DNA of 64,000 bases, taken from contig CP136064.1 in NCBI GenBank assembly GCA_032622095.1, positions 146,570,864-146,634,863 on the forward strand, given 5' to 3'. Shown here piece after piece: positions 21,534-62,531 of the stretch (its first letter is position 1; each line of letters starts with the position of its first letter). Source of the stretch: Siphonodentalium dalli. Its lineage: Eukaryota; Mollusca; Scaphopoda; Gadilida; Siphonodentaliidae. The notes under the pieces are model-generated. The model was given only the letters and a program-made list of their open reading frames with translations, was not told the origin of the DNA and searched no databases. The position numbers and the translations under genes were made by a program.

Positions 21534-21534
21534 G

Positions 21535-43377: not shown

Positions 43378-43579
43378 AGCAGACTACTTGCTTCGAGCGA
43401 CTTGTAATAGTCAATGACAAGATATCAGTGCAACTTTGCACTCAACATTATTCCAACGTTGAAATTCAGCAAATGAACAAAATTCAAAGTCAAAAGTTTG
43501 CCAGGTTACTTTACCACCGTATGAAAATGGTATTTGAGGCGGTAAAGAGTTCGCTACATTTGTAAATTATAGGTACATC

Positions 43580-43867
43580 TTACACATTATTTTGCATGGG
43601 ACCTGCGTCAGCAGAAACAGAAACAGTTTGGGCTGGATTGGCATTAATTTGCTTGCCGCCTAAAATTTGACTGATAGTAGGTCCCTGGAATAAGTTTGGG
43701 TTAGGCCAATTATTTTGTCTGGGCCCTGCGTCAGCAGACGCAGGAACATTTTGGGATGATTTGGCCTTAGCTTGCTCGCCGCTGGATGTTACTGAAATTT
43801 GTTTGGTTGTTGGTTCCAATAATGTGTTTTGGTCAGACCAAGGATGATATTGTTTTGTCAACTTCAC
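43580..43867 (-). pseudogene. repeat-bearing gag-like fragment
   Basis: An open minus-strand frame with two diverged copies (about 126 bp) of a unit containing SADAGPRQNN / SADAGPMQNN. It lies between the fragment at 43111-43377 and the 3' LTR, probably N-terminal to the same gag. No domain assigned. Confidence 0.4.
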
Positions 43868-44064: not shown

Positions 44065-44243
44065 TCTTTCTGTTGAGATTATATCAACCCACAATCCTCG
44101 GCTCTCGCTGTAGTCAGCAATTGGCTGCGATATCGTCGGTTTGATTGGACCGCACCCAATGTTTATTGATGACGTATTTTGACAGCGGCACATTGTTTAT
44201 ATTCGACCACGTGGAATAATTATTGTTTACCAAATTCACTACA
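44065..44243 (-). repeat. short LTR, 3' copy (179 bp)
   Basis: Minus strand begins TGTAGTGAATTTGG and ends CAACAGAAAGA. Contains TATAAA (about 44205) and AATAAA (about 44160) as possible promoter and polyadenylation signals. The preceding AACTGGGTGGTG is a weak polypurine tract. The end is not the canonical CA. Confidence 0.65.
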
Positions 44244-44480
44244 CACCACCCAGTTTTATTTTGAAAAGAATGAAGATAGCCTGCTAAACCAAAATGGGTA
44301 GAGTGCCTATGACTACATGAGTCAAAACCCTGACCTCGCAAAAATAGGGTTATGATGTTTTCCAATCATAGCTGGAACCAGTACAATTTGGTTTGGTATT
44401 TCAAACCTTACATGTACCAGACCCTGCCAGTATACAAACTATTGGAATCAAAGTATACTGCAGGCTGCTGACTCGGTTTT

Positions 44481-47165
44481 TCAAGTCATTCTATAAAAGT
44501 ACTTGGCATTTGCAGTAGTGCGCGCAAGTACCTCTCGGAGGGAACAACCTTTAATAGTGGCGATGAATTCGGCAATATCTCCTATTAAGGCTGGAGATGT
44601 ATATGGATGTCCCATTTCTTTGCCAAAATATGGGGCATCAGTTTCCAATAGAAGGCGGTTCATAGGTATTGATCTTATGCCTTCTTTTTGTAAGGAGTTA
44701 AATTTGAAGCACGACCCAGATATTCCGAAGTGTGCATTATGGAATTTGCGGGACCATGCCTCGACCATATCTGAACTTCCCATGAAGGAATGGAGATGGA
44801 AGTGTTGGTCGGGATAACACTCCTTTTCACACAGGTGGAGCGCGGTGAAGGTTACATCCCTATTCATTTTGTCAGTTTTTTCTCCTCTTATATGCAAGAT
44901 GATCGGTTTTTCGATCTTTCTTGCATCTCTGAGGAGGGATTGAAAGGCCATATCTTGGTCATATCGATCTTCGGAAGTAAGATCCATTGATCGATCTAGT
45001 CCAATTTCACCAACGGCAGTTGTTGCTGGGTGGTGAATCAATTGATTCCACTGGGTTCTTAGTGCCGGATTTGACAGCAGTTTGAACTGTTTAGGGTGGA
45101 ATCCTATGGCAATTTTCCACATGGGCTCATTGGTGACCATATTAGGGTATTGAAAGGGGTCACACATTACGTCGACTCCGCCAATCACCTGCACAGCGTT
45201 GTTTGGGAAAATAAACTTTGCTGCACTTAAAATTGCCTCGACTGGGGTGTTAACTTTGTGGGGCAATCGCTTCGTCAACCGGTTGAGGTGGAAGTGGGTG
45301 TCTACCCCTACCGGAATCAAAGGGTGGATCAGCGGTGACATCGTGACTTGTGTCGGTTGCTGAACTTGTGATGGAAAAATTGGCCTTACAAAACTTGGAG
45401 TGCCGATGGAACCCTGCGGTTTGGTTGGTACCGGTAATAATACTTTAGCAATCACCTTTGGTGGCGGTATCCATGACATTAACTGCTGAACTGCATTATC
45501 CCTATTGGATACTGACGGTCCGCCTGTAAATCCTGGGGGTGGTGGCAATGGACATGATGTCCAGGCTGCCACCTTTTGTGGTGTTGGTGGTGGTGGTAAT
45601 GGGCATGTTGCCCAGGCTGCCACCTTTTGTGGTTTCAGTGGTGGTGGCGGCAATGGACATTTTGACCGATCTGCCGCCCTCTGTGGAGGTTTTATTGGGG
45701 AAAGTTGAGCTGCTTTACCCATTGTGGATGTTGACTGCTCTTTAACGCACCTTGGGAATAACAATAAGGCCACTGCGGTTTGAAGGTCAATAGCTCTTTC
45801 AGGGATGTTGTCTGGCATTTCTGATGTTATCAGTCGCTTAACTGTATCCCTGACTCCAGCATCATTCTTAACCTCTTTGACCTTAGTCATTATGTGGTGA
45901 CGGCCTATACCATGACATGGAGCTCTACAAAATTTCTTGAGACATTGCTCGGAGGTATCGTTATTGCACACGCCTTTATTTGGGTTTGTAATGATATTTA
46001 TAATTGCGGCATGACACCTCCAGAAAATTAGACAGGCTGGGTGGTTAACAGGGTTGATTTTGAAAGAACTTGGGATCTTCCAGCCTTGTTTTTTGCAAAT
46101 TGTAGTCATGGTTTTAATATATATTGGGTTGTAAGATGTGGACCGGGGGAATACAGTCTGATCATATGTTGTCTTATTGACGGCATCCAACAATGTATTT
46201 AATTGTTTTAGGAGAGGCAAGTTGGGGTCTGGACGACTGATGACCATTGCCATTTCTGACAGGTCCTCCAGCGTCTTCTGTAACCACTTAGGGTGGGGTA
46301 CCTCATCTAAGACCCACCAGTAGGTTGGTAGGTGGTTGGTCATCACATGGCCTTTTACCCCACCTCTGTGTACCCATCTTGCACAATAATTGTAGGGGCA
46401 TGGCGCACCTGCTTTTTGTTTGGGTGGCGTCGGCTGAGACTCTATATTGTCTTGTGCCAGCCTTTTATTTCTTTTTTGTATTGCGCCCTGAGTTTTTATC
46501 GGTTGCGACTCCTTACTGAACACAGAAGGAGGAGTTTTTATTGTTTGCGACTCCTTACTGAACACAGAAGGAGGTACTACCCTATTTATTTGAGGAGGTT
46601 TGACGTATTGGATTTCATCGTCTATGATCTCCCCTTCTTCCAGTTCATGGGTGTAATGTTTTACCTCGGGGACTATGTTTTGACTTGTTGGGTCACTAGA
46701 AACAGTCGCCTGGGGGCCAGAGGAGTAATTACCTCTTTTTCTAAAGCCTTTAGCTTTTGGTCGCTGTTCTTTGGGGAGGGGGCCCATATTTTTTTCTACC
46801 CATTCGCGGGACAGACACATGTGTTCATGTGCGCACTTGCGACATTCGTAGAGCCATTTGATTTTTGACTTGGACTTTGCCAATTCATATTGGGAGAGTA
46901 AAATGCTTTCCCTCTTTCTATTGTCCCAGCTAGTTCCCAATAGCTTAACTATTAGTTTCACTGGGTCTTCCAATAAACGGCCTTGGGTTACCGTGTATTC
47001 TATAGCATATTCTCTCTCAAGTTGCTCTGCATTTGGCTGACATGAGGAAGTTGACTCAGTTTCTGGGTCTTCGATTTCCTCTTTATTATTGTCAGCGGTT
47101 TTTGTCGTGCTTACAGAGGAAGTGGACTCGGTGATCAAGTCTCTATTATCCTCTTTTTGCGCCAC
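44481..47165 (-). CDS. ORF3: zinc-finger protein with C-terminal TatD-type nuclease
   Basis: An open frame of 894 codons at the env position. Residues 1-150 are acidic then basic, with a Cys/His cluster C108-x2-C111-x-H113-x3-C117. A C2H2-like finger is C256-x4-C261-x11-H273-x4-H278. Residues about 495-560 hold three CPLPPPP repeats. Residues 619-894 form a TatD fold: THFHL (H624, H626), VGEIGLD (E720), IILHI (H758), HLHSF (H792), LLETDAPY (D843). All five metal-ligand positions of TatD DNases are present, and the GFHP and VGEIGLD blocks are well kept. Known TatD enzymes are Mg-dependent DNA exo- or AP endonucleases; action on retroelement cDNA or target DNA is an inference. The start given is only the frame limit; see the N-terminal extension at 47146-47499. 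No membrane segment. Confidence 0.9.
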   Translation of the reverse strand: MAQKEDNRDLITESTSSVSTTKTADNNKEEIEDPETESTSSCQPNAEQLEREYAIEYTVTQGRLLEDPVKLIVKLLGTSWDNRKRESILLSQYELAKSKSKIKWLYECRKCAHEHMCLSREWVEKNMGPLPKEQRPKAKGFRKRGNYSSGPQATVSSDPTSQNIVPEVKHYTHELEEGEIIDDEIQYVKPPQINRVVPPSVFSKESQTIKTPPSVFSKESQPIKTQGAIQKRNKRLAQDNIESQPTPPKQKAGAPCPYNYCARWVHRGGVKGHVMTNHLPTYWWVLDEVPHPKWLQKTLEDLSEMAMVISRPDPNLPLLKQLNTLLDAVNKTTYDQTVFPRSTSYNPIYIKTMTTICKKQGWKIPSSFKINPVNHPACLIFWRCHAAIINIITNPNKGVCNNDTSEQCLKKFCRAPCHGIGRHHIMTKVKEVKNDAGVRDTVKRLITSEMPDNIPERAIDLQTAVALLLFPRCVKEQSTSTMGKAAQLSPIKPPQRAADRSKCPLPPPPLKPQKVAAWATCPLPPPPTPQKVAAWTSCPLPPPPGFTGGPSVSNRDNAVQQLMSWIPPPKVIAKVLLPVPTKPQGSIGTPSFVRPIFPSQVQQPTQVTMSPLIHPLIPVGVDTHFHLNRLTKRLPHKVNTPVEAILSAAKFIFPNNAVQVIGGVDVMCDPFQYPNMVTNEPMWKIAIGFHPKQFKLLSNPALRTQWNQLIHHPATTAVGEIGLDRSMDLTSEDRYDQDMAFQSLLRDARKIEKPIILHIRGEKTDKMNRDVTFTALHLCEKECYPDQHFHLHSFMGSSDMVEAWSRKFHNAHFGISGSCFKFNSLQKEGIRSIPMNRLLLETDAPYFGKEMGHPYTSPALIGDIAEFIATIKGCSLREVLARTTANAKYFYRMT

Positions 47166-47499
47166 TCACTTCGGCTTCTACTGAGGAAGTTGACTTGTTA
47201 ACCAGGTCTTTGATTTCCTCTTTGTCTATTTTAATGTCAGCGGTGTCACTAGTTATTTCCATTGATTCAGGTTCTGAATCTTTTGGAATGACTAGCACTT
47301 TTACCTGCTCTTCAACCGCCTTACCTTGCTCAGTATCCATCGATTCAGGTTCTGAATCTCTAATGGATACTGAGCTTGACGCCGTCAACTCTGTTGGATG
47401 TTTCGCCTCACCAGTCAAAGTCAACTCAGTATCTGAATTGTTGTCGCTAGTGAGGCGATTTATCGCAGCTATGGTATCCTGATAATCCGTTTCTTCCAT
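47146..47499 (-). CDS. ORF3 N-terminal extension
   Basis: A frame from ATG at 47499 (MEETDYQD) to a stop at 47146. Acidic, with two RDSEPESM/KDSEPESM repeats and the phrase STSSV that recurs at the start of the TatD frame. It meets the TatD frame in a five-A run (about 47155-47160), where one extra A would explain the break. I infer a single ORF3 of about 1,010 codons with a frameshift. Confidence 0.6.
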   Translation of the reverse strand: MEETDYQDTIAAINRLTSDNNSDTELTLTGEAKHPTELTASSSVSIRDSEPESMDTEQGKAVEEQVKVLVIPKDSEPESMEITSDTADIKIDKEEIKDLVNKSTSSVEAEVSGAKRG

Positions 47500-47533
47500 T
47501 TTGAGCACGGAAGGTGACTGTAAAGAAAAGGAA

Positions 47534-47773
47534 TTAGTCTGAACACTTGGTACATTTATATGTATCCAAACTTTCTCCCTCTTCAGCGGTAATGTTGACA
47601 CAATGTCCATGAAACCAGTCTAAACAGTGGTCACATTGAATCATGAACTTTCCTCTGTATGCCTTTTTACATATGCAGAATATATTTGTACTTCGGTTGA
47701 CGGAGACTTCTCCAGTCTTATTGAAGTTCTGCTGGCATTTTACTAACCAAGGTGGTAACACTTTGTCATTGCA
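47534..47773 (-). CDS. PHD finger at the integrase C-terminus
   Basis: Minus-strand frame beginning just behind an in-frame TGA (47774-47776) that ends the integrase tail. VLPPWL, typical of the end of Gypsy integrases, precedes a complete C4HC3 PHD finger: C29-x-C31, C43-x2-C46, W49, H51-x2-C54, C70-x2-C73 (counted from the LPPWL start). PHD fingers bind histone H3 tails, often K4-methylated or unmodified; tethering integration to chromatin is an inference by analogy with integrase chromodomains. The single stop between the parts suggests a broken fusion or, less likely, readthrough. Confidence 0.85.
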   Translation of the reverse strand, partial: CNDKVLPPWLVKCQQNFNKTGEVSVNRSTNIFCICKKAYRGKFMIQCDHCLDWFHGHCVNITAEEGESLDTYKCTKCSD

Positions 47774-48060
47774 TCATTTGATTCGATCATGATTCACCAC
47801 CGTTATTGTGTTTTTGAATATTACTTTAAAAAGATATGGTGTGAATTTGGCAGAAATGATTCCTGGACCTTTCCATATTGGTTGCAACTTTTTGGTCTTA
47901 CCTTTGACATTTGCCGTGTCTAACAGATATACCAGGTCACCCACATTGTATGTGTGCTTAGAGAAGTGTACGTCATAATTACGTTTCATTACCGCTTGTG
48001 ATGTTTTAAGGGTTGATCGTGCGATTTCATGACATGTTTTCATCTCTTTTTCTAGACTGT
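47774..48060 (-). pseudogene. integrase C-terminal domain (frame-shifted continuation)
   Basis: Contains NVGDLVYLLD, LQPIWKGPGII and VVNHDRIK, the GPY/F-type integrase C-terminal module (WKGPGI in place of W.GPY). Out of frame with the catalytic core by one shift near 48060, and ended by a TGA before the PHD part. Confidence 0.85.
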
Positions 48061-49056
48061 TTATACATACTCTGGGAGCTCTGGTTTTTGTTGATCGGTT
48101 TTGAAATTGAAAACTAAATCAGCGGGATGGTTTACCTCGCGACCTAGCATGAGTTTATTTGGGGTAAAACCGGTGTTACGGTTGACTGAGGATCGCAACG
48201 CTCCAGCAAGCTGGGGTACGTACTTGTCCCAGTCTTTCTGGTTTTTATCCACGTAACATCGGACGGCATTCATAAGAATACGATTCTGGCGTTCAATTTG
48301 ACCATTTGAACTTGGTCGATAGGCTGTGGTGCGGGACTTATGAATTTGGAAAAGTTCACAAATTGCTGTAAACAATTTACTTTCAAAACAGGACCCTTGA
48401 TCTGTGAATACTTGAAATGGGGCTCCAAACCTTGCAAAAAATTCGTTCACTGCTATGAGTGCCGTTGTTTCTGCTGTTTGGTCTGGAAGCGGTATACATT
48501 CTACCCATTTGGTAAATTGATCAATCATTATGAGAATGTATTTATTCCCTTTATCACTAGTGTGTAATGGTCCTAGAAAATCTAAATGAACTCTTTCCAT
48601 TGGGGCACCTGCATGATACTTGGTCATATCCGATTTTGAATGTTTTGTTGGTTTTTTAGATTGATTACATTTTGGACAAGCCGCGACGAAGGATTCTACG
48701 TCTTTAGACATTCCATACCAACAAAAATTCTGTTTTATTCGTGATAAGGTACGTGCAACACCTTGATGGCCAGAAGCGGGTATGTCATGGGCTAATTCCA
48801 ATACTTCGGAAGCATATTTACTTGGTATGACCAGAATTGAACCTCCGGATTTCGGGGTTTTATGTAGAAGTCCATTTTTAAAATGGAACCTTGACCGGTT
48901 TATCCAACAGTGTTTGGCAGAAGGTCCAGTGATGAATAAATCACCTTCACTGGGTTCTTCTCCTGTTTCCAACCAAGTAATAATTATTTCCAAGTCGGGG
49001 TCAGCTCTTTGAGCTTTTCCCAACTCTTCTGAGCTTCCTAGGCTGGATAGTGCCAA
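48061..49056 (-). CDS. integrase zinc-binding and catalytic domains
   Basis: Residues 90-130: H90-x6-H97-x29-C127-x2-C130 (HHCC zinc module). The catalytic triad D159 (HLDFLGP), D219 (FTDQGS) and E255 (GQIERQ) has 35 residues between the second D and E, as in active retroviral-type integrases. It inserts element cDNA into the genome. The N-terminal residues continue the RNase H frame after a one-base change near 49062. Domain intact within itself. Confidence 0.92.
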   Translation of the reverse strand: MALSSLGSSEELGKAQRADPDLEIIITWLETGEEPSEGDLFITGPSAKHCWINRSRFHFKNGLLHKTPKSGGSILVIPSKYASEVLELAHDIPASGHQGVARTLSRIKQNFCWYGMSKDVESFVAACPKCNQSKKPTKHSKSDMTKYHAGAPMERVHLDFLGPLHTSDKGNKYILIMIDQFTKWVECIPLPDQTAETTALIAVNEFFARFGAPFQVFTDQGSCFESKLFTAICELFQIHKSRTTAYRPSSNGQIERQNRILMNAVRCYVDKNQKDWDKYVPQLAGALRSSVNRNTGFTPNKLMLGREVNHPADLVFNFKTDQQKPELPEYV

Positions 49057-49060
49057 ATTA

Positions 49061-50219
49061 TCAGGAGGTTAATTGTTGAATTAGCACTCCGGGCTGCATA
49101 AGTGCTTTGTTGGCAATTTCAAGTTGGGTATGGGTCCAACCAGTTTCTGGTTCTATCCCACTCCACTTTGAGGTTTTGTATTCCCACTGATCAAAATTAG
49201 TATGGATATTTATTGTTGATATTGTAGGGCTAGCGTTTTTATTAACTTCTGGATCAAATTCTGACTCGAATTGACACGATCCTTTTGCTAATGGTACTGC
49301 ATAATCAACATCTTCTTCAAATTTTGACCAGTTGGTATGTATTCGGGTACAGTATTTGCATCCCCCACATGGCAAATCTTCAAGTTTTGTGTCAGCGGTA
49401 TAACTGTGACACACTGGATGGGGTGATGCAATACAAGATAATGCATCCGCATTGGAATGTTTTATCCCAGGCCTATGTTGTACTACCATATCATACTGGC
49501 TGAGTTCCTCGAGCCATCTCGCAATTTGACCCTGAGGCTCTTTGAAGCTGATCAGCCATTTTAATGAATTATGGTCTGTTCTTAGAATAAATGGCCTTCC
49601 CAACAAATAGTGCCTGAACTGGCGTGTGAAACGAACTACTGCTAGCAGCTCCTTTCTCGTCGTACAATACTTTATTTGTTCTCCGGATAAACCATAACTT
49701 CCATAGGTAATAACCTTTTCTTCCCCTTGTTGTACTTGAATTAATTCGGCGCCAATTGCAAAATTTGAGGCATCGACATCCAAAACAAAGAGATCAGTCT
49801 TGTTGGGGAGGGTTAAGATTGGCGGATTTATTAAATCCACTTTCAGTTTTTCAAAAGCTTGTTGTTGCTCACTTTCCCAAACAAACTTTTGTTTACCCGT
49901 AACTGCATATAGAGGCTTTGAGGTTTTAGCATAGTCTTTAATGAACATTCTGTGATAATTTACTAGGCCACAGAATTTTTCTACGTCTTTTGAACACGTA
50001 GGGACTGGCCAGTGTTTTACCACTTCGCATGAAGAATTAATCATTTCAAGACCATGCTGGCTCACAGTTCTGCCGAGAAATTCCACTTTTTTCTGACGGA
50101 AAGTACATTTTTGGGGTTTTAATTTTAATTTGTACTTGCGCAGTCTTTGTAAAACTAGGCGCATGTTTTGGAGATGCGAGATAAAATCCTGGCCTAAAAT
50201 AACCAAATCGTCTACGAAC
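49061..50219 (-). pseudogene. RT palm/thumb (FVDD) and RNase H
   Basis: Starts at the catalytic FVDD box (50208-50219), followed by FLGRTVSQHGLE and the connection. RNase H follows with VLDVDAS, TTRKELLAVV, LRTDHNSLKWL and HSNADALS, i.e. all four acidic positions. The frame is open to 49061 but is separated from the first RT half by a one-base change near 50237. Downstream of RNase H is a Cys-rich patch CGGCKYC of unknown role. Confidence 0.9.
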
Positions 50220-51843
50220 GATAGAACAATGTCCCAGTTAATAGTCCAGCTAGTACTAGGTTCATTACTCTACAGTACGTTTGGGCAGCATTGCAGAGAC
50301 CAAAACTCATTTTACGAAATTCCCACAAACCGTATTTTGTTAAGAAGGCTGTCTTGGGGCGATCTGATTCTTGGACATTTACCGCCCAATAAGCTGACTG
50401 ACAGTCTCCCTGACTAAACCATACATTACCGGATAACGAGTCAATACACTCGTTTATTAATGGTAATGGATAACAGTCTTTTACGGTGACCGCATTTACC
50501 AATCGATAATCAAAAGCCCATCGAACACTTTTGTCTCGTTTCCGAATCAACACTGGAGGGCTACTCCATTCACTTATTGAAGGTTGAATCACTTTTGATT
50601 CTAACATTTTCTTTAAGTGTTGTTCTTCTTCGTTTACGAAGCATAGTGGTGTTCGACGCATGCGCTGTTTAACGGATTTAGCATCTTTAGTATCAATATT
50701 GTGTTCGATTTCGGTGAAATCACCAATGTCGAAATCGCTTTTAGCAAATACATCTTGAAATTCACTTAATACTGATGCTAGTTCCCCAGCTTCATTGTCA
50801 TTTAGTAGGGTTCTTGATCTGTCGAACAGATCTTTTAAATGATCAGGCATATTGATTGCGGTTTTGCATATTTTTATTTTGGATGAATGGGAATCATCGG
50901 ATGAATGGGAATCCTCATCACTGGAACAGTTATTTGTTCCTTTTCCGAGGTTTTCTTCGATTGTTATTTCATTTAATTGGTTTTCATCTGCCGGCATGAC
51001 ACGGTCAATTTCAGAGGCTAGTGAAATAATTTCATGTCTTTTAAGTTTCACACATGCATCATTGACGTTAATTATGCCAACTTTAGGTTTTGTGTGTGCA
51101 CCATGTACTGTTCTAAAAATTAGCAAGTTATACCAGCAGTTGGGTTCAATGATGTATTCATCATCTAAAGCGGTTTCTAGATTGCATTGCAATAAAACTA
51201 CTGAGTTTGGTGGAATAGTTGTAGTTTGATTTACAATAACTCTAGATATTTTTGGATTTTCGGTAACAACTTGTTGTATTTTGAAGTCCAAATTTGGCTC
51301 TAACTGAAGAATACCTTTGCATACATCAATTTGGGCTTGATGTTTTATCAGAAAATTCAAACCTAATAGCATTGGGTCTTCAATTGGTCCTACATAAATT
51401 TTCTCGGAGAAGTGTTTTTCTCCTATTGTTATTTCTATTGGACCTATTATTAAATGACCTTTGAATTTGGAATTTCTAGCGGCTGTATTAATGGAAATTG
51501 TTTTTACAATTTGGGGTGTTGGTCTCAAATTTGAGAATGTTTCTTCAGAAATTATAGTAATATCTGCAGCGGTATCGATCACTGCTTCTGTACTATAATT
51601 GGATATATTGATGGGTGTTCTAATTGCAGATAATGATTTTATTCTATTAATTGTGAGAATGGTTTCATCCTCTTCTGGTACCAAATAACTTTTATCATCA
51701 GAACTTGTTTTCTGCGATTTAACATTGCTGTTTTTCACAAATTTTTGTGAAGTTTCATCAGATAAGTTATTGTTGTTTATGGTTTGATCAATATCCTTTG
51801 TAATTTCTGTAATGAAGTCATTTTGCCTATCCGGGCTACCCAT
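50212..51843 (-). pseudogene. aspartic protease and RT fingers
   Basis: A frame of 543 codons. Protease active site VIDTAAD (D90; DTA variant of DTG) and the later MLLGLNFL flap-end motif (about 158-165). RT part from about 385: KQRMRRTP, WSSPPVLIRKRD, RWAFDYRLVN, YPLPLI, and the first catalytic aspartate D480 in FSQGDCQSAYW (usually LDL). Then TAFLTKYGLWEF and MSFGLCNAAQTY. The frame leaves the RT just before the FVDD box by a one-base change. Confidence 0.9.
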
Positions 51844-51859
51844 CAGACTTCTTGATCGG

Positions 51860-52324
51860 ACCCCTTCTTGTTTAAATTAAAGGATACCCCTTTTCGGTCC
51901 GAACTAGACTTGTTTTTGGAATTATTTGAGGGACAATCTTTCATAAAATGGCCATAACCTTGACATTGGAACAGCGAGAGTTGCTGCCCCTTGATGGTGA
52001 TGGAGATCGGTCCGCATAAGGCGGTTTGCTCTCCTTTTGCTCCATTTTGGGCGTAATTTCTAATTTTTCGGAAATTTTACCCAAAGTTTCCACTAACGAC
52101 CCAATCTTGTCTTCCATGAAGTACATCCGGGATTTTAATGAGTGTACCTCAGTAGACATAGGCTTGTACGGTGAAGGTGAGCGCGAATTATCACTATTAC
52201 CTTCTTTTGTATTTTGGGAAAATCTGGGCTTAAATTCCCTTCTGGCATAATTTGGTTTATTTTGCCAATTTTTTCGATCATCTCTTCGAAATGATCGTGA
52301 CCTATTTATTGAGCAGACAGTTGA
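51860..52324 (-). pseudogene. gag C-terminus with broken CCHC knuckle
   Basis: Continues the gag frame after an in-frame TAA (52325): arginine-rich RSRSFRRDDRK, then a coiled-coil-like stretch with KSRMYFMEDKIGSLVETL. A CCHC zinc knuckle follows whose first cysteine is in one frame and whose remaining part (QCQGYGHFMKDC) is in another. A one-base change sits in the knuckle near 51985. The knuckle would bind element RNA. Confidence 0.8.
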
Positions 52325-52910
52325 TTATGCTTCATCATCTTCGGAGTCTGACGACAATACGGTTTGGCGCACCTCACGTCGCGTCTTTGTTGCACCATAA
52401 ATTGCCTGGTGAGTGTATTGGTGCCAACGGATTTGATTGATGGCGCTTTCTACACTACGAGGCTTCTTATTGGCAACAAATTGACCTGCTTCTCTGTCAT
52501 TACATCCTTGACAGATGCGCATGATTGCTTGTTGCAATGTTAACTCTTGGGGCAAGTTCTGAAAAGCTCTTGTGGCTAGAGTCAAAGCGGTATCTGCCCA
52601 ATCTTCTAAAGATTGACTGGGATCCTGCTTTGAATGGACAAATTCCAACTGCACGGTCTCTGGTAGATCATGAAAACCAAAGCGATTTTCTAAGGCTATC
52701 ATGGTTTCGGCGAAGGTTGCTTCAGGATTTTGATCCATTAACAGGGTGTAATATTCGCTGGCTTTGCCTTTTAAGAACCAGCATAGTGCATTCATGCTTT
52801 CAATTTCATTCCATTGCTCGACATTTGCAAAGTTCATAAACTTGAGTCGGAATGATTTCCAATCATCATTGCCTTCAAATGTAATGTGCTTTGGGGTGTA
52901 TGGTTTACGC
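52325..52910 (-). pseudogene. gag (retrotransposon gag domain)
   Basis: Frame with RKPYTPKHITFEGNDDWKSF, ALCWFLKGKASEYY, ALENRFGFHDLP, SLEDWADTALTLA and IRWHQYTHQAIYG: the helical gag domain of Gypsy elements. Separated from the Gln-rich part by a frame change near 52912 and ended by TAA at 52325. Confidence 0.85.
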
Positions 52911-52914
52911 CTCT

Positions 52915-53472
52915 CTACCTATTAAGATTGTTCTGATGAGCCTGTACTGGCTGCAGGTTATACATTTGTGGCTGTTGAAATGGTTGCGGTTGTTGAAATT
53001 GTTGCGGTTGTTGAAATTGTTGTGGTTGTTGAATTGGTTGCGCTTGTTGAATTGGTTGCGCTTGTTGAATTGGTTGAAATGGTTGTTGCATTTGTTGTGG
53101 TTGTTGCATTTGATTAGGTTGTTGCGGCTGTGGTTGAAATTGTTGTTGTTGTGGTTGAAATTGTTGTTGTTGTTGAAATTGTTGTTGTTGTGGTTGAAAT
53201 TGTTGTTGAGGTTGTGGTTGAAATTGTTGTTGTTGTTGATATTGTATACCTGGGGTTATCAACGTTTGGTTACCATTGGCTGACACCGGCGGTAAACCTT
53301 TTGATGTTGAACCCGTGCTATACAATGTTTGTGTTGGTTGCGAAAAACCTTGACCCAGTGACATCTGATTTTGATTGTATTGCACACTTTGACGACTTTG
53401 TTTCCAATCAAAATGTGGTGGTGGCATATTCAAATTTGGCATGTTCGCCACAAATTGTGTCTGTGCATGCAT
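52915..53472 (-). pseudogene. Gln-rich part of gag N-region
   Basis: Repeated QQFQPQ and QPIQQA units over about 100 residues, encoded by CAA-rich DNA with near-microsatellite character. It is prone to length change and perhaps to phase-separating behaviour; the latter is inference only. It overlaps the end of the HhH frame in another phase, with a frame change near 53430. Confidence 0.75.
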
Positions 53473-54712
53473 GACTGTTCATACTAGTGGGTGCTTGTGA
53501 AATTGGTGGATTGTATGTCGACACTGTTTGCGGCTGTTGTATTGGCACTTTGTGTGGCAAAATGTGTTTTCGTCTATTGGCCGGTGCAGTATTTTGCACC
53601 TTCGGTGGAGTCTTACTATTAGTATTACCAAAAGTGAATGTTGGTTTACTAGTTGACATATTTGGCAACTGAAAAGTTGTTTGAAATGGCTGTGACATTA
53701 CTGGTAGTGTGCTGTACTGTACTGCACCAATATTATTGTAACTTGTAGACATTGTCAAACTGTGGTTACTAACATTTACTGGCATTGCTTGCGCTGGGCC
53801 AGTACTGTAATGGCTAGTGATCACATTTTGTGATGCCATGGTTGTGATGACTGATGTGCTTTGTATAACACCATGGTTAGAAATAATGGTTGAGGTCTTA
53901 GATGGTGTTGTTGTTACTGCGCTCATGGGAAATGTCGCAGTGTAACTTACACTTGGTGGCGTCACTATTCTTGTACTCATGACCGGTAAACCGGTTGTGT
54001 TTACCAAAGTTGTTTTGGTATCACTCCCTTTAATACCTGTCACATGATTACCTGTTGCAGTATTTGCAGCTTTTGTAATAGAGTATAACGACTCATTATC
54101 ACTATCTGAGTCCATCCCTGGTAAATCACCCAACCATTTGTGTCGTTGCGGTGTACCGGTGTTGCTATGACTTGGTGTCATGGGCTGGTAATTCTCAACC
54201 CTTCTATTATAATTCCCTATACATGGAGGTGATATGGGCTGGTATTTTTCAACCCTTATATCTTGACCATATTTCATGGGCTCATCATAAGTAATATATA
54301 AATCTGATGACCTATTCATACCTGTGTTAACTAGATTTTCAGGAGATATGTATCCTGCACCGAAAATTTGTTGTGGGAATGTCGGTGAAGGTACTAATGG
54401 TATTGGTGATCTAATCACATTTGGTATGGGATTTTGTGTCACCATGTCATTGTTGATGGAATTATCAACATATATTGGCTTTGGTGGTACTGAAAAATCA
54501 ATAACTGCCATTTGATCCCTTGACCCTCTGAAAAATGGTATCATAAACAAATCTTCCTTTGAAAGAAAGCTTATTTCCTTTCTTCTTTCAATAATGGACT
54601 CGGCAACTTTGGGTCCGACACCGGGAATTGCTTGCAAATCATAAAAATTTGCTGTGTTGACATTTACTTTATTTTTTATGGAAGCCATCTTCAAAAGTAA
54701 ATAAGTTAACAA
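53408..54712 (-). CDS. HhH-domain gag N-terminal protein
   Basis: 434 codons. Residues about 16-62 form a ComEA-like helix-hairpin-helix domain: VNVNTANFYDLQAIPGVGPK then KEDLFMIP, with the PGVGPK hairpin at 30-35. HhH domains bind DNA backbones without sequence preference. The rest is Ser/Thr/Pro/Asn-rich low complexity. Either ATG at codon 1 or the second at codon 9 (MASIKNK) could start it. A truncated copy (219 codons) lies at 57043-57702. Confidence 0.8.
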   Translation of the reverse strand: MLTYLLLKMASIKNKVNVNTANFYDLQAIPGVGPKVAESIIERRKEISFLSKEDLFMIPFFRGSRDQMAVIDFSVPPKPIYVDNSINNDMVTQNPIPNVIRSPIPLVPSPTFPQQIFGAGYISPENLVNTGMNRSSDLYITYDEPMKYGQDIRVEKYQPISPPCIGNYNRRVENYQPMTPSHSNTGTPQRHKWLGDLPGMDSDSDNESLYSITKAANTATGNHVTGIKGSDTKTTLVNTTGLPVMSTRIVTPPSVSYTATFPMSAVTTTPSKTSTIISNHGVIQSTSVITTMASQNVITSHYSTGPAQAMPVNVSNHSLTMSTSYNNIGAVQYSTLPVMSQPFQTTFQLPNMSTSKPTFTFGNTNSKTPPKVQNTAPANRRKHILPHKVPIQQPQTVSTYNPPISQAPTSMNSHACTDTICGEHAKFEYATTTF

Positions 54713-55815
54713 TGAAAAATAATGAATCTGTTAGAACTATCTGTAACAAATGCCCTGAAGTAGTATTTTACTTCTTACGAGCTTGATGTTACCTTTAAAT
54801 ATGTGTTGACATTCATTATGGCAATAACATAAATGCAAAATTGAACTTGAAACATCTGAATCATATGGAATGCATTTAGGATAAACATGGCAAAATTGGA
54901 TGTCAAAATCTGGATTGGCATACAAAAATGGATAATAGGCATTGTAATATTTGTATATGAAAAATATATGGCAAAAATGGCAATATCAGAGCAAAAATTA
55001 TCAAAAATTTCAACTATCTAAAAAATAGCAAAAATGGACATTTTATCAGGCAAAAATAATTTATGCAAGGTAAACAGGATCAATTACATCAAAATTGGAC
55101 AAAATATAGGGTAATTTAACAATTTATAGGAAAATAGGACAAAATATATCAAAATTTTGACAAAAATGGAGCAAATTATCAAAAATGGACAATATTCTCA
55201 AAAATTGGCAATTAATAATCAATCAATCATTCAGTTTAATGAACAATGGCAATATTCAACAAAATGGGCAATATTAATGCAAAATTAGACAAAATATGGA
55301 TATTTATCAAAAATATATGAAAAAGCTATCAAAAATAGAATTTAATGCAATATATGGAATTAATTTGATACAGAATATTAATTAATTGGCAATATGAGTA
55401 ATCAATACATTTTATAGCAAAAATTGGCAAAAATGGAAAAAAAATATATTTTGGACAAAAATGGCAAATAAAAATGAACTCAAAAATCACATTTTCAGTT
55501 TTCACTACTTATACATGATACAATGGCTTACAATTCAATATGACACTGTGTTTAGTGTCCCTGATATTGAATTGCAAAACACGTGGATTGCCAATTGAAA
55601 AAATCAATATGGCCTCCCTCGCCGATTCGTTTGTTAGCGAACGACGTCATTTGTAGCAAAGTTGTAATGGATATTATTGAACAAGGAATGCACTTACATA
55701 AATTTATTATCAGGAATATGTCAACATCATTTATAACGAATCATCATAAGTCAGTGTTAATATATTGAATTGAAGAGTTGCTATTAAGTTCAAGTTGTTC
55801 TTGTCGTGGTTCGAG
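54713..55815 (-). other. A/T-rich leader between 5' LTR and gag
   Basis: About 1.1 kb built of degenerate words such as CAAAAATGG, AAAATTGGCA and ACAAAATATA (plus strand). No coding frame. In the second copy it is interrupted by the piggyBac MITE. Confidence 0.6.
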
Positions 55816-55994
55816 TCTTTCTGTTGAGATTATATCAACCCACAATCCTCGGCTCTCGCTGTAGTCAGCAATTGGCTGCGATATCGTCGGTTTGATTGGA
55901 CCGCACCCAATGTTTATTGATGACGTATTTTGACAGCGGCACATTGTTTATATTGGACCACGTGGAATAATTATTGTTTACCAAATTCACTACA
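55816..55994 (-). repeat. short LTR, 5' copy (179 bp)
   Basis: Matches 44065-44243 with one mismatch seen (TTCGACC / TTGGACC). Followed on the minus strand by CTCGAACCACGAC, which does not look like a normal primer site. Confidence 0.65.
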
Positions 55995-56778
55995 TAGCTG
56001 TTGTTGCGACTGAGCAGAAAAGTTATGATTTGTGACCACCGGTGCGCCATAATTAAGGTAAGGCGAACCTAACATTTGCATATTATGTGGATTGAATACC
56101 AGCAGATTCCAATATGGCAGTGGTACATATGGGTGACACCAAAATTGTGGCATGCACGGTTGTGCGTCTCTTGGTTGATATGAGATTGATGAATCATTTT
56201 TTGTCAGATATGATGTCAAATTTGTGTCAGATTGTGGAATTGTTACAGTCATTACTGGAATTGTGGACATCAGCAGATTTCCCATCCCATTTCCCGATAA
56301 GTTAGGTATAATGGACATATTTTGCACACTGGTAACTTGGGCTCCTGACTCTGAAATGGTACCATCAACAGCAGTTGGGTACAATCACTGTTGGTGTCAT
56401 GTCATGATTGAATTCGTTCCAATGGCCATTTGTTCTGTATTCGTGGTTTGGACATTGTTAGCCCGACAAGTGTTAAATTCCGTTGATATTAATGACAGCG
56501 CATTAAATTTATCATTTGATGCCCCACCAATGTTACTCACTTGCGAATATCTGTTTTCGCAATGATGAGTGTCATTCCTGATAACCCCTGAGTGCATGAA
56601 CGTTTGATTTGGTGGGTAATTGTACATTATCGTACATTATTCCAATTGGGATGTTTGAACCCATGTGATTAGAAGCTCCGAGAACAGATCCGGACAATGA
56701 ATCATTCTTCTGGCTAATCAGCGGATTAGCGATGGAGTGCGCTCGGTGAGTTGTGTTCTTGAGTGAACAATGGCTCAA
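55995..56778 (-). pseudogene. gag-like low-complexity coding remnant next to the 5' LTR
   Basis: Three minus-strand frames in succession (MSHCSLKNTTHRAHS..., YNYPPNQTFMHSG..., YPTAVDGTISES...) with Ser/Asn/Gln-rich composition like the gag N-region. The first break is a 10-bp duplication (AATGTACGAT / AATGTACAAT near 56620-56640). The last frame runs into the LTR after AQSQQQL. I infer a coding region of another element disrupted by insertion of the TatD element. No domain identified. Confidence 0.45.
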
Positions 56779-57042
56779 CCCACTGGCTGGATACTGGATT
56801 ATACGCCCTGTTCACATTTGTACTGATGTTTTGAATCATCGTGCAAATGACCTCTTTCCGTTTCAACGAAACAACGATTGACTGTTTGCCGATATGAATA
56901 TTTCAGAAAATTCCAGCGGGAATGTCCTATTTTATATCACAGCGTTATTATAGCAACATCCCTTGTTGTTGGATTGTTTGTGAAAATTATTTTTGACCTC
57001 CCAAATAATTAGCACAAATAAAAACTCAGAAATTTGCTAATT

Positions 57043-57702
57043 TCAGAGATCCTGGGCAGCTTTTGTAATAGAGTATAACGACTCATTATCACTATCTGAG
57101 CCCATCCCTGGTAAATCACCCAACCATTTGTGTCGTTGCGGTGTACCGGTGTTGCTATGACTTGGTGTCATGGGCTGGTAATTCTCAACCCTTCTATTAT
57201 AATTCCCTATACATGGAGGTGATATGGGCTGGTATTTTTCAACCCTTATATCTTGACCATATTTCATGGGCTCATCATAAGTAATATATAAATCTGATGA
57301 CCTATTCATACCTGTGTTAACTAGATTTTCAGGAGATATGTATCCTGCACCGAAAATTTGTTGTGGGAATGTCGGTGAAGGTACTAATGGTATTGGTGAT
57401 CTAATCACATTTGGTATGGGATTTTGTGTCACCATGTCATTGTTGATGGAATTATCAACATATATTGGCTTTGGTGGTACTGAAAAATCAATAACTGCCA
57501 TTTGATCCCTTGACCCTCTGAAAAATGGTATCATAAACAAATCTTCCTTTGAAAGAAAGCTTATTTCCTTTCTTCTTTCAATAATGGACTCGGCAACTTT
57601 GGGTCCGACACCGGGAATTGCTTGCAAATCATAAAAATTTGCTGTGTTGACATTTACTTTATTTTTTATGGAAGCCATCTTCAAAAGTAAATAAGTTAAC
57701 AA
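57043..57702 (-). pseudogene. truncated copy of the HhH gag N-terminus
   Basis: The first 216 codons equal the HhH protein at 54712-53408 except one residue. The frame then crosses the duplication junction and stops three codons later. The HhH domain itself is complete. Confidence 0.85.
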
Positions 57703-58489
57703 TGAAAAATAATGAATCTGTTAGAACTATCTGTAACAAATGCCCTGAAGTAGTATTTTACTTCTTACGAGCTTGATGTTACCTTTAAATATGTGTTGAC
57801 ATTCATTATGGCAATAACATAAATGCAAAATTGAACTTGAAACATCTGAATCATATGGAATGCATTTAGGATAAACATGGCAAAATTGGATGTCAAAATC
57901 TGGATTGGCATACAAAAATGGATAATAGGCATTGTAATATTTGTATATGAAAAATATATGGCAAAAATGGCAATATCAGAGCAAAAATTATCAAAAATTT
58001 CAACTATCTAAAAAATAGCAAAAATGGACATTTTATCAGGCAAAAATAATTTATGCAAGGTAAACAGGATCAATTACATCAAAATTGGACAAAATATAGG
58101 GTAATTTAACAATTTATAGGAAAATAGGACAAAATATATCAAAATTTTGACAAAAATGGAGCAAATTATCAAAAATGGACAATATTCTCAAAAATTGGCA
58201 ATTAATAATCAATCAATCATTCAGTTTAATGAACAATGGCAATATTCAACAAAATGGGCAATATTAACCCTTTGAACCCGTAACACCGATATTTAGGTGC
58301 AAACGAACCGTGACTATATCCCGTAACACCGATATTTCGGTGCAGCGACGACATGATTCGGTAGCAAATTTATATATAGTATAACGAGCGTCAGACCCAC
58401 TGATTTATATTTAAATTGCTCCCACATATGTCAGCGGCGGCCATGGTGCGTATGGAATGGTTGACCGCTAGTATCGGGTAGAAATATAT

Positions 58490-58499
58490 GCGCATGCGC
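58490..58499. promoter_or_regulatory. NRF1-type palindrome GCGCATGCGC in MITE copy 2
   Basis: Perfect motif, with a second at 58703-58712. Conserved between diverged MITE copies. Confidence 0.5.
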
Positions 58500-59619
58500 A
58501 TAGCATATAATCTACAAAAACATACGATATTTTAAGCGAACTGTGCCGCTATATTTACGGCATATAATTTCGTGTTCCCCGTGTGTGTACAGAACAGACA
58601 TAATTTAAACACACAATTTCAGTTTAAATTACCCTCGCGTATATTAACCAGTGTTCTGCTACATATGGGGAAGGGTCTATCGCATATGAAGTTGATTTAT
58701 TCGCGCATGCGCAGACTAGCGCAATGACAAATAAATGGTTTATAACGTACTTATACACGACATACCCACTAATATATATATTTAAATTGGCCAATTGAAG
58801 TCAGCGCTGGCAAAGGTGTCTATATGGATTGGCTGCCCGCTAGAAACGGCTAGGAAAATATGCGCATGGGCGCAGGCTATAATTCATTTTTTTTAAATGC
58901 GTTTAAGTGAAATGTGGCGCTATATATGACATTTTGTTGCATGTTTCACATGTTAGTACAGTAGACACAATCTAGACAGCTTACTTGAACAATGGGGCCA
59001 CGATATGTTACGGGAAATTACGTTGTTTCTGGTCTCTGTAATATCAGTCTCTGTTGTGCCACATGCAGCAAAAAGTCTATTGCATATCAAGTTGACTTAC
59101 TCGCGCATGGTCAGGTATATCTTAATTTCACATTAGGATATTGGTTGCATCGAAACACAATTCGCTGATGTATAAACGTTATAAGCTAGAATTCGTTTAT
59201 CCTGCAAATGTCGGGTAGTTGCCTAACTTGCCTAGTAACCGTTTCTAAGGCGAGATCGGGTGGCAAAGTCTCCCGATCTTACAATGATCAGTGGTCCGTG
59301 CATGCATAGGCCTATATATCATGCCTTCACAGTTTCAGGTAGGTGTCCACTTTCAACATAACCAACACCATGCGACTAGACACTGTCTAAATTAAGGCAA
59401 AACATACCACTGAGTGGTTAGTGCAATTATGTCATTCGAGCAGTTGTGGTATTTGCTTAGCAACCGTTGCTACTCTTAAATGGGATATTTGGTTCACTAT
59501 TCTGGTCGGGTATATCTCAAATTTCACGTTAGGGTAGTACCTGCATCAAAAAACCCAATCACTGAGGTTGAATTACGACGCTATAAGCTATATTTACATT
59601 CTCCAGTCAATTCCGGGTA

Positions 59620-59632
59620 GTTGCCTAGCAAC
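59620..59632. promoter_or_regulatory. X-box-like GTTGCCTAGCAAC in MITE copy 2
   Basis: Identical to the 13-mer in MITE copy 1. Related half-sites lie near 59225 and 59458. Confidence 0.5.
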
Positions 59633-60383
59633 CGTTACCAAGGAGTTGCCGTGAGGCAAAGTCTCGCGATCTTATAATGATCGCTGATCCATGGGGGACA
59701 AACCTGTAAAGTTTCAGACCGGTGTCGCAATTTGAACATAATCAACACCATGCTACTAGACACTGTCTAATTTAAGCGGACATACCACTGGGAGCCCCGG
59801 GTCAGGGTGTCGATCACTGTGGGGCGCCAGGGTTCAAAGGGTTAATGCAAAATTAGACAAAATATGGATATTTATCAAAAATATATGAAAAAGCTATCAA
59901 AAATAGAATTTAATGCAATATATGGAATTAATTTGATACAGAATATTAATTAATTGGCAATATCAGTAATCAATACATTTTATAGCAAAAATTGGCAAAA
60001 ATGGAAAAAAAATATATTTTGGACAAAAACGGCAAATAAAAATGAACTCAAAAATCACATTTTCAGTTTTCACTACTTATACATGATACAATGGCTTACA
60101 ATTCAATATGACACTGTGTTTAGTGTCCCTGATATTGAATTGCAAAACACGTGGATTGCCAATTGAAAAAATCAATATGGCCTCCCTCGCCGATTCGTTT
60201 GTTAGCGAACGACGTCATTTGTAGCAAAGTTGTAATGGATATTATTGAACAAGGAATGCACTTACATAAATTTATTATCAGGAATATGTCAACATCATTT
60301 ATAACGAATCATCATAAGTCAGTGTTAATATATTGAATTGAAGAGTTGCTATTAAGTTCAAGTTGTTCTTGTCGTGGTTCGAG

Positions 60384-60562
60384 TCTTTCTGTTGAGATTA
60401 TATCAACCCACAATCCTCGGCTCTCGCTGTAGTCAGCAATTGGCTGCGATATCGTCGGTTTGATTGGACCGCACCCAATGTTTATTGATGACGTATTTTG
60501 ACAGCGGCACATTGTTTATATTGGACCACGTGGAATAATTATTGTTTACCAAATTCACTACA
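60384..60562 (-). repeat. third copy of the 179-bp LTR
   Basis: Part of duplication copy 2. Same sequence as 55816-55994. Confidence 0.85.
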
Positions 60563-61346
60563 TAGCTGTTGTTGCGACTGAGCAGAAAAGTTATGATTTG
60601 TGACCACCGGTGCGCCATAATTAAGGTAAGGCGAACCTAACATTTGCATATTATGTGGATTGAATACCAGCAGATTCCAATATGGCAGTGGTACATATGG
60701 GTGACACCAAAATTGTGGCATGCACGGTTGTGCGTCTCTTGGTTGATATGAGATTGATGAATCATTTTTTGTCAGATATGATGTCAAATTTGTGTCAGAT
60801 TGTGGAATTGTTACAGTCATTACTGGAATTGTGGACATCAGCAGATTTCCCATCCCATTTCCCGATAAGTTAGGTATAATGGACATATTTTGCACACTGG
60901 TAACTTGGGCTCCTGACTCTGAAATGGTACCATCAACAGCAGTTGGGTACAATCACTGTTGGTGTCATGTCATGATTGAATTCGTTCCAATGGCCATTTG
61001 TTCTGTATTCGTGGTTTGGACATTGTTAGCCCGACAAGTGTTAAATTCCGTTGATATTAATGACAGCGCAATAAATTTATCATTTGATGCCCCACCAATG
61101 TTACTCACTTGCGAATATCTGTTTTCGCAATGATGAGTGTCATTCCCGATAACCCCTGAGTGCATGAACGTTTGATTTGGTGGGTAATTGTACATTATCG
61201 TACATTATTCCAATTGGGATGTTTGAACCCATGTGATTAGAAGCTCCGAGAACAGATCCGGACAATGAATCATTCTTCTGGCTAATCAGCGGATTAGCGA
61301 TGGAGTGCGCTCGGTGAGTTGTGTTCTTGAGTGAACAATGGCTCAA
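60563..61346 (-). pseudogene. duplicate of the gag-like remnant
   Basis: Duplication copy of 55995-56778, with a few substitutions and the same 10-bp duplication and frame breaks. Confidence 0.5.
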
Positions 61347-61626
61347 CCCACTGGCTGGATACTGGATTATACGCCCTGTTCACATTTGTACTGATGTTTT
61401 GAATCATCGTGCAAATGACCTCTTTCCGTTTCAACGAAACAACGATTGACTGTTTGCCGATATGAATATTTCAGAAAATTCCAGCGGGAATGTCCTATTT
61501 TATATCACAGCGTTATTATAGCAACATCCCTTGTTGTTGGATTGTTTGTGAAAATTATTTTTGACCTCCCAAATAATTAGCACAAATAAAAACTCAGAAA
61601 TTTGCTAATTTCAGAGATCCTGGGCA

Positions 61627-62531
61627 AAATTTGCAATACCAGGTTTAAATGCACGAATATTGAATATATGGGGATATTTTATCAGAAATTTGCCTACATA
61701 AATGCTATTGGTAACATTATATAATAGACAAATTCACCCAAATTCCTATAACAATTTGAAAAATTCAAGAAAAATGAAAAACAAATTCTAAGAAAATTAG
61801 CAAATATAACACTCTGAGAGAAAAATAATTCAATTGCCTGAAATTGAAAAAAATGAAAAGAAATTTCCTTGAAAATGGGCCAAAAATAAAATTCAGTGCC
61901 GTTTAATTGAAAAATATGATGAATTGGATTGAAATATCCGAGCAGCGAAATGAAAACAAAACAGCCTTCATTCCTCACTAACAAATAGGTTAGCTAGTAA
62001 CAACTGACTTGAAAAAAAAATTAATATATTCAACAAATTGGCATAAACTGGTGTGGAAAATTGCAAGCAAAAACAATCAGAAAAATTGCAAAAATGGATG
62101 ACAAAAAGCAAAATTATCTAAAAAAATATATATATCGGAATAATAGTATGCAGTATAAACTAAGAATATCGAAAAAACATGGTGCAGATCGAAGAAATTA
62201 TCATATATAATGAACGGATTGAAAAAAAAAAAATTTAACACTCTAAAAAAATTCAAGAAAAAATGCACAAAAGCACCGCAAAAGATTCGAGTAAAATCGA
62301 TGACGTCATTTGTAAATATTATTGGGGTACATTGCATTAGTGCTGCATAGTTATACATGATAAAAATAGTGTGCAAGTGTGAAATAATACCTTTAATACA
62401 CGATGAGACAATAAACAATGTTGACAATAAGAGGTTCTGTTTTCGACTGACAGTCTTCATTCGCATGGTCACCTTGTCAGCTTTGGGGTATCTTCGGGCA
62501 TCCTCAGTGGCTTTCGGATTTTCCCGTATCT
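61627..62531. other. A-rich sequence resembling the leader
   Basis: Degenerate AAAATTG, GAAAAATG and CAAAAATGG words similar in style to the leader at 54713-55815. No reliable coding frame. It may be the leader of the older, related element. Confidence 0.4.

What the first reader, a model, noticed from the sequence alone, without database searches (positions are those of the whole stretch)
44065..55994. A Gypsy-type retroelement with a TatD nuclease domain in the env position
Seen: after protease, RT, RNase H and a DD35E integrase, the same strand carries an 894-codon open frame whose last 276 residues form a TatD domain with both HxH histidines, the GEIGLD glutamate, two further histidines and the ETDAP aspartate. 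Known: TatD proteins are cellular Mg-dependent DNases. Inference: a captured nuclease that processes cDNA ends, removes host or competitor DNA, or assists integration. I know of no description of such an element but cannot search.
Basis: partly seen in the sequence, partly recalled or inferred. Interest (0 to 1): 0.88.

Follow-up and report, generated by a model that had tools for sequence, protein, structure and literature searches.

The report
Retrotransposon clade carrying a TatD nuclease
Many related virus-like jumping genes in this genome carry, where a virus would keep its coat gene, a nucleic-acid-cutting enzyme of a kind normally found in cells; its cutting site is intact in most families examined and lost in a few.

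Summary
Confirmed and extended. The window holds a Ty3/Gypsy LTR element (173-nt LTRs, one difference) with HHH-gag, capsid, PR-RT-RH-IN and, in the env position, an 894-codon frame ending in a TatD domain (E 2.5e-35) with a complete active site. In the same genome 66 of 121 scored relatives of its integrase have one of 150 scored TatD hits within 12 kb downstream on the same strand; none lies upstream or on the other strand. Integrase and TatD trees of 11 families share 7 of 8 splits (0 of 20,000 shuffles), so most simply TatD was acquired once and descended with pol. TatD dN/dS is 0.06-0.17 in three families. ORF3 carries a C2H2 finger in every family read that far; three families add a Tpt1/KptA RNA 2'-phosphotransferase; two keep a TatD-like domain with the active site destroyed. 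ORF3 shows no sign of an envelope. Best mechanism: nucleic-acid end processing on the element's RNA or RNA:DNA intermediates; unproven. Enzyme-bearing ORF3s are known from rotifer LTR elements; my searches listed no paper on TatD in a retroelement.

The parts
55822..55994 (-). 5' LTR, 173 nt, TG...CA
   Evidence: direct comparison, 1 difference from 44071-44243
53408..54712 (-). gag N-terminal frame with helix-hairpin-helix motif
   Evidence: HHH_3 E 1.4e-9; same motif in gag of L017, E 1.1e-7
52915..53472 (-). Gln-rich gag frame, no Pfam match
52325..52837 (-). capsid-like frame (PNMA family)
   Evidence: PF14893 E 2.8e-6; matches in L016, L017, L019, L021, L024
50212..51843 (-). aspartic protease and N-terminal part of reverse transcriptase
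   Evidence: gag-asp_proteas E 1.3e-6, RVT_1 E 2.1e-11
49061..50206 (-). end of reverse transcriptase and RNase H
   Evidence: RT_RNaseH E 4.8e-30
48061..49056 (-). integrase, H2C2 zinc domain and D-D-35-E core
   Evidence: H2C2 E 5e-19, rve E 1.7e-14
47560..47680 (-). PHD finger at the C-terminus of integrase, in a shifted frame in this copy (ends approximate)
   Evidence: read by eye; PF00628 E 2.9e-9 in sibling L035
47146..47610 (-). ORF3, N-terminal piece, out of frame with the main part in this copy
   Evidence: continuous 1047-aa frame in sibling L035
44481..47165 (-). ORF3, main frame, 894 aa, in the env position
46320..46400 (-). C2H2-type finger of ORF3
   Evidence: pattern match at residue 256; a like finger in the ORF3s of the other families read that far
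44493..45305 (-). TatD nuclease domain with complete active site
   Evidence: PF01026 E 2.5e-35; catalytic columns
44071..44243 (-). 3' LTR, 173 nt
57056..61638 (-). tandem duplicate of the 5' end (54066-57070) with an insert at about 58268-59841; contains a third LTR at 60390-60562

Best explanation
The element belongs to a deep Ty3/Gypsy clade whose third gene is not an envelope but a nucleic-acid-processing protein: variable, often acidic N-terminus, in some families a Tpt1/KptA RNA 2'-phosphotransferase, a C2H2 finger, a further weakly conserved region and a C-terminal TatD nuclease. SHOWN: position, architecture, active site, agreement of TatD and integrase trees, low dN/dS of TatD in three families, and loss of the active site with retention of the domain in two families. 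INFERRED: one acquisition from a cellular HxH-type TatD gene. INFERRED, moderate to weak: the protein binds the element's nucleic acid through its finger and trims 3' ends of RNA, or of RNA in RNA:DNA hybrids, during or after reverse transcription (a helper to RNase H, clearing primer and fragment RNA or damaged ends before integration), with Tpt1 dealing with 2'-phosphates (or capping ends by ADP-ribosylation) where present; families with a dead TatD use the domain for binding only.
For: Linkage: 66 of 121 IN hits, 0 upstream or opposite; 80 of 150 TatD hits with both IN lists. Trees: 7 of 8 splits shared, 0 of 20,000 shuffles; with the two dead-TatD families 7 of 10, again 0 of 20,000. TatD dN/dS: W/L035 0.13 (16 syn, 8 nonsyn), L020/L021/L022 0.08-0.13, L023-L028 0.06-0.17, 7 pairs in all; four of these seven were tested against an assumed synonymous share of 0.25, p 2e-5 to 3e-4. 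Active site: 12 of 13 element rows keep the metal ligands (T becomes S in ETD of L030 and L031; one histidine that also varies in bacteria is Y in L017), the 13th, L043, does not. Tpt1 in ORF3 of L033 (E 1.4e-47), L049 (1.6e-44) and L021 (1.1e-32), aligning to solved tRNA 2'-phosphotransferases. C2H2 finger. HxH is the group of TATDN2 and TATDN3 (PMC10085689, passages); TATDN2 is described as an RNA 3' exonuclease and endonuclease that resolves R-loops (PMC12709183, introduction and discussion read). In 13 frames tested the highest 19-residue hydropathy mean is 1.74, inside the Tpt1 domain.
Against: No activity, expression or localisation data. TatD enzymes also cut ssDNA and AP sites, so RNA is not the only candidate substrate. 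Two families (L043/L044 and L045/L046) lost most of the active site, so catalysis is not required everywhere. Human TATDN2 was not in the tree; the link to TATDN2 rests on the HxH group and on the nearest rows from the same genome. L017's place is a long branch, and its TatD dN/dS of 0.35 is not significant. Tree distances correlate weakly without L017.
Confidence: 0.45

Rival explanations
1. ORF3 TatD trims 3' ends of the linear cDNA before integration (a DNA role).
For: TatD enzymes are 3'-5' exonucleases, primarily on single-stranded DNA for TATDN1 and TATDN3; ORF3 lies beside an integrase that carries a PHD finger.
Against: Integrases make their own ends in known LTR elements (recalled); Tpt1 in three families is an RNA enzyme; two families lack the TatD active site.
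Confidence: 0.2
2. ORF3 is a counter-defence protein that degrades or sequesters host small RNAs or cleaved element RNA; the dead-TatD families only sequester.
For: RNA-directed TatD relatives; Tpt1; dead nuclease folds kept for RNA binding, Maelstrom and EXD1, are named as a parallel for rotifer ORF3s (PMC5408684, passages).
Against: No direct evidence here on small RNAs; animal piRNAs carry a blocked 3' end (recalled).
Confidence: 0.2
3. ORF3 is a passenger: a host TatD gene carried along without a function for the element.
For: In bdelloid LTR elements ORF3 evolution showed no significant departure from neutrality (PMC5408684, passages).
Against: TatD and integrase trees agree across families whose integrases are about 43-60% identical to each other, dN/dS is low, and 82 of 150 scored TatD hits lie in open frames of 600 aa or more.
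Confidence: 0.05
4. ORF3 is a divergent envelope or an entry protein.
For: Position after pol.
Against: No env match in Pfam, no convincing membrane segment in 13 frames, C2H2 finger and nucleic-acid enzymes instead.
Confidence: 0.02

Closest known systems
Bdelloid rotifer LTR retrotransposons (Vesta, Juno) with DEDDy-exonuclease or GDSL ORF3 (PMC5408684, abstract and passages)
   Same: Gag-pol LTR elements with an enzyme-coding ORF3 in the env position; one enzyme is a 3'-5' exonuclease of RNA/ssDNA type; two enzymes can share one ORF3
   Different: DEDDy or GDSL there, TatD and Tpt1 here; there the ORF3s are family-specific, missing from early branches, the DEDDy type acquired at least twice and without significant departure from neutrality, whereas here a TatD ORF3 was found in every family read and its tree follows that of integrase
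Cellular TatD group II nucleases (TATDN2, TATDN3, YcfH, YjjV)
   Same: HxH motif and complete metal site
   Different: Here the C-terminal domain of a finger-bearing retroelement ORF3, in many copies
Tpt1/KptA RNA 2'-phosphotransferase
   Same: Pfam match over nearly the full profile, aligns to solved tRNA 2'-phosphotransferases
   Different: Fused upstream of a C2H2 finger and TatD in a retroelement ORF3
Ginger1 transposases with PHD, OTU or Ulp1 C-terminal domains (PMC2836005, passages)
   Same: Gypsy-type integrase with an added C-terminal domain; PHD in one listed family
   Different: DNA transposons without RT; the word TatD does not occur in the text

Membership tests
Ty3/Gypsy LTR retrotransposon | LTR pair with TG...CA ends | tested here: met
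   173 nt, 1 difference
Ty3/Gypsy LTR retrotransposon | domain order PR-RT-RH-IN | tested here: met
Ty3/Gypsy LTR retrotransposon | target-site duplication around a fresh insertion | tested here: inconclusive
   none seen (flanks CTTTC and TAGCT), but the 5' end is rearranged by tandem duplication, so this copy is a poor test
Ty3/Gypsy LTR retrotransposon | RT or IN tree placing it in a named clade | not tested
   no reference Gypsy set on hand
TatD nuclease, group II | HxH and complete metal ligands | tested here: met
   window copy and 12 of 13 element rows; L043 fails, L045/L046 fail by eye
TatD nuclease, group II | nuclease activity | not testable with these tools
   -
TatD nuclease, TATDN2 clade | groups with TATDN2 in a tree | tested here: inconclusive
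   element rows are next to TatD rows of the same genome that look cellular, but human TATDN2 was not in the set
Env-bearing LTR element (retrovirus-like) | env glycoprotein with membrane segment after pol | tested here: not met
LTR element with an enzymatic, non-env ORF3 (broad kind) | separate enzyme-coding frame after pol | tested here: met
Bdelloid Vesta/Juno-type ORF3 | the enzyme is DEDDy or GDSL | tested here: not met
   only TatD and Tpt1 enzymes found in ORF3
Tpt1/KptA | full domain with conserved Arg and His motifs | tested here: met
   PF01885 profile 3-177/177 in L033 and L049; RH, QGH, RxHIH and SGMRS seen in L033 (that these are catalytic is recalled); L049 read by eye

The most novel reading that the evidence does not exclude
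A retroelement lineage carries its own RNA end-repair or RNA-evasion protein: TatD trims damaged or host-cut 3' ends of element RNA (or the RNA strand of hybrids) and Tpt1 erases the 2'-phosphate scars left by RNA healing-and-sealing, so that reverse transcription can pass; in side lineages the nuclease became a pseudoenzyme that only binds, a repeat inside a transposon of what Maelstrom and EXD1 are for DEDD nucleases.
Probability: 0.15. Interest if true: 0.88.

Novelty: new variant of a known kind. Interest (0 to 1): 0.72.

Why it matters
LTR elements are usually described by gag, pol and sometimes env. Here a nuclease gene appears to be an inherited, constrained part of a whole clade, joined in some families by a second RNA enzyme and in others turned into a pseudoenzyme. 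That gives a ready comparison of active and dead forms for asking what an ORF3 nuclease does for a retroelement. It may also matter for annotation: some 'TATDN2' gene models in invertebrates could be retroelement ORF3. In the giant squid paper a figure legend lists TATDN2 beside ZMYM1 and a pogo element among the non-Hox genes of the Hox cluster (PMC6962438, one passage); that this is such an ORF is my guess.

Tried and rejected
Single-sequence AlphaFold of the window TatD gave pLDDT 38 and was not used. An ORF3-upstream dN/dS was out of frame and is void; the corrected value is 0.50. The one-frame pol-TatD of L036 (2082 aa) looked like a polyprotein family, but copies with the same integrase have separate pol (1685-1687) and ORF3 (950) frames and about 2.7 kb between IN and TatD against 1.0 kb here, so I take it for a deletion copy. 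Families first seen without TatD (rows 14-24; the 1434-aa pol family) were effects of the capped list or hold a dead TatD; one or two copies of each were read. A tRNA gene in the window was looked for and not found. PMC3286476 (passages) had PHD only as a neighbouring host gene.

Results that weaken the case: a control with the window's other Gypsy-like frame (20964-21575) and a search with the L017 integrase never got an answer, so specificity rests on the 0 upstream or opposite-strand pairs and on my own arithmetic for chance (121 x 150 x 12 kb / (2 x 2.227 Gb), about 0.05, random placement assumed). Tree-distance correlation: Pearson 0.87 and Spearman 0.60 with L017, Spearman 0.29 without it (385 of 10,000 shuffles as high). 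Integrase dN/dS used as comparison was 0.81 for L020/L022 (1 syn, 3 nonsyn), 0.17 for L026/L028 and 0.01 for L026/L027. Of 20 loci, 13 show Gypsy pol near TatD and 7 do not (L009-L014 and L025). 70 of 150 scored TatD hits had no listed integrase; L015-L018, L021 and L023 among them do have one when read; most of the others were not read.
Full report
1. The observation. The minus strand of 44071-55994 reads LTR, gag with HHH motif, capsid, protease, RT, RNase H, integrase, ORF3, LTR. Residues 621-891 of the 894-aa frame are a nearly full-length TatD domain, E 2.5e-35, with the metal-site residues in place. The integrase spacing D-35-E was counted by hand on the translation. The LTRs differ at 1 of 173 positions. 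This copy is defective: pol is spread over several frames and ORF3 over two; siblings with open frames exist (pol 1445 aa in 2 of the 15 IN hits at 95% identity or more; ORF3 1047 aa in L035). The 5' end is tandemly duplicated with a third LTR.

2. It is not a one-off. The genome holding the window has 2.23 Gb in 9 contigs. A PF01026 search gave 529 candidates; 150 were scored, all over the cut-off, 82 of them in open frames of 600 aa or more. A search with the window integrase gave 4730 candidates, 121 scored. Joined by coordinates, 66 of 121 integrases have a scored TatD within 12 kb downstream on the same strand, and none upstream or on the opposite strand; by my arithmetic about 0.05 is expected by chance. 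In the window's own family (IN 95% or more) it is 12 of 15 copies; the other 3 were not read. With a second integrase query (123 scored; 44 places that I picked by eye as new were added) 80 of 150 TatD hits have an integrase. The lists are capped, so absence from them proves nothing: three families without a listed TatD were read first, and all three have a TatD-like ORF3 (L029 873 aa, L030 890 aa, L043 754 aa). Of 20 ten-kilobase loci read around TatD hits (all ten top hits, then every second rank from 11 to 29 of 150), 13 have Gypsy pol matches on the TatD strand; L009-L014 and L025 do not. L009-L014 carry a TatD domain in a frame of about 300 aa, preceded by a CCCH-like stretch, and look like cellular genes, although L010 and L011 are 99.6% identical over 10 kb on two contigs, which I cannot explain.

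3. Descent with pol. Trees of integrase and TatD for 11 families share 7 of 8 splits, and none of 20,000 label shuffles reaches that. With two dead-TatD families added, 7 of 10 are shared, again 0 of 20,000; the splits that differ concern the deep order of L017, L020, L033/L036, L026/L034 and L043/L045. Element TatDs other than L017 form one clade (100/99); L017 joins it with 85/86 to 90/87, a long branch. L017, with an integrase 43% identical, has the same make-up: HHH gag, PR-RT-RH-IN, then an ORF3 with C2H2 fingers followed by TatD. A single acquisition is the simplest reading. Distances agree less well than topologies (figures in Tried and rejected).

4. Selection. Between near copies TatD has dN/dS 0.13 (window/L035), 0.08-0.13 (L020-L022), 0.06-0.17 (L023-L028), and 0.35, not significant, in L015/L017/L018. 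The part of ORF3 before TatD is looser (0.50). Between families synonymous sites are saturated; in five TatD pairs third positions differ 1.8 to 2.9 times as often as second positions.

5. What ORF3 is. A C2H2-type finger, about Cx2-4C...Hx3-4H and mostly followed by a proline, was found by pattern in the window family, L029-L034, L020/L021, L026 and L017 and by eye in L043 and L049; it is missing from the deletion copy L036 and was not reached in L045/L046. Three families (L033; L049, which has the same integrase as L036; L020/L021) add a Tpt1/KptA domain, E 1e-32 to 1e-47 for full-length matches. The L033 domain aligns to solved tRNA 2'-phosphotransferases with RH, QGH, RxHIH and SGMRS kept (that these are catalytic is recalled). 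Two families, L043/L044 and L045/L046, about 33% identical to each other in this part, keep a TatD-like domain (L043: PF01026 E 1.1e-7; L045 matches L043, E 6e-29) whose active site is destroyed. L043 lost the first histidine of HxH, the GE glutamate, both further histidines and the ETD motif and keeps the second histidine of HxH. L045, by eye, lost both HxH histidines, the glutamate and both further histidines and keeps the last aspartate. The frames are open in L043 (754 aa) and L045 (397 aa in the piece read); L044 and L046 have a frame break in the piece read. L045/L046 show 9 synonymous to 6 nonsynonymous changes (dN/dS 0.23, p 0.004), L043/L044 3 to 1. The integrase ends in a PHD finger by Pfam in L030, L035 and L043 and by eye in L029, L031-L034 and L049, with similar tails in L020 and L026; none was listed for the L017 pol frame. 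No env match or convincing membrane segment was found.

6. Mechanism. Shown: architecture, active site, agreement of trees, constraint. Inferred: origin from a cellular HxH-type TatD. The RNA reading rests on TATDN2 being described as an RNA 3' exonuclease and endonuclease on R-loops (PMC12709183, introduction and discussion), on Tpt1 acting on RNA 2'-phosphates (PMC13247085, passages) and its relatives being studied for RNA ADP-ribosylation (PMC6582358, search listing only), and on the finger. TatD enzymes also act on ssDNA and AP sites (PMC10085689, passages), so the DNA rival stands. The dead-TatD families argue that binding alone is enough in some lineages.

7. Prior knowledge. Bdelloid rotifer LTR elements carry DEDDy-exonuclease and GDSL ORF3s in the same place (PMC5408684, abstract and passages). 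Searches for TatD with retrotransposon and LTR (1 paper), with gypsy (3 papers), with retroelement (2 papers), and for TatD DNase with expanded and transposable (0 papers) listed no paper on such an element, judged from titles and abstracts; the loose searches (30 of 3,874 and 40 of 2,742 listed) and the TATDN2 search (40 of 69 listed) showed none either. A mollusc and an annelid LTR survey do not contain the word TatD in the main text held. Tpt1/KptA in a retroelement: one loose search, 12 of 11,710 listed, nothing relevant seen. The library is open-access only; Repbase-type reports are not held.

8. Limits. One genome, not named; no other animal genome could be searched; no expression or biochemistry; two planned genome searches, one of them the control with another Gypsy, did not complete; family counts come from capped lists.

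Noticed in passing
window 20346-20900 and 20964-21575 (-), between 700-nt repeats 19460-20159 and 21535-22234 (99.7%): A second Gypsy-like fragment by eye (integrase C-terminus; no Pfam match) followed by a frame with C2H2-like fingers in the same ORF3 position and no TatD match; the repeats look like its LTRs.
   Followed up: partly
L033, L049, L020/L021: Tpt1/KptA RNA 2'-phosphotransferase fused upstream of the C2H2 finger and TatD in ORF3.
   Followed up: yes
L043, L044, L045, L046: TatD pseudoenzymes in ORF3 of two families.
   Followed up: yes
L010 and L011 (two contigs): 10 kb 99.6% identical, with a 1125-aa frame (weak Agenet match) and a TatD frame with a CCCH-like stretch: recent duplication or another mobile unit.
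   Followed up: partly
window 54066-61638: Tandem duplication of the element's 5' end, with a 1.6-kb insert in one copy, parts of which are 76-77% similar to 8054-8339 and 8372-8993.
   Followed up: partly
window 43150-43476 (-): Weak second capsid-like match (26% identity, E 2e-5) just outside the 3' LTR, near an 81% repeat pair at 43586-43782.
   Followed up: no
G000:C9:88521179-88522749: Two TatD frames of 222 aa facing each other about 0.26 kb apart; not linked to any listed integrase.
   Followed up: no
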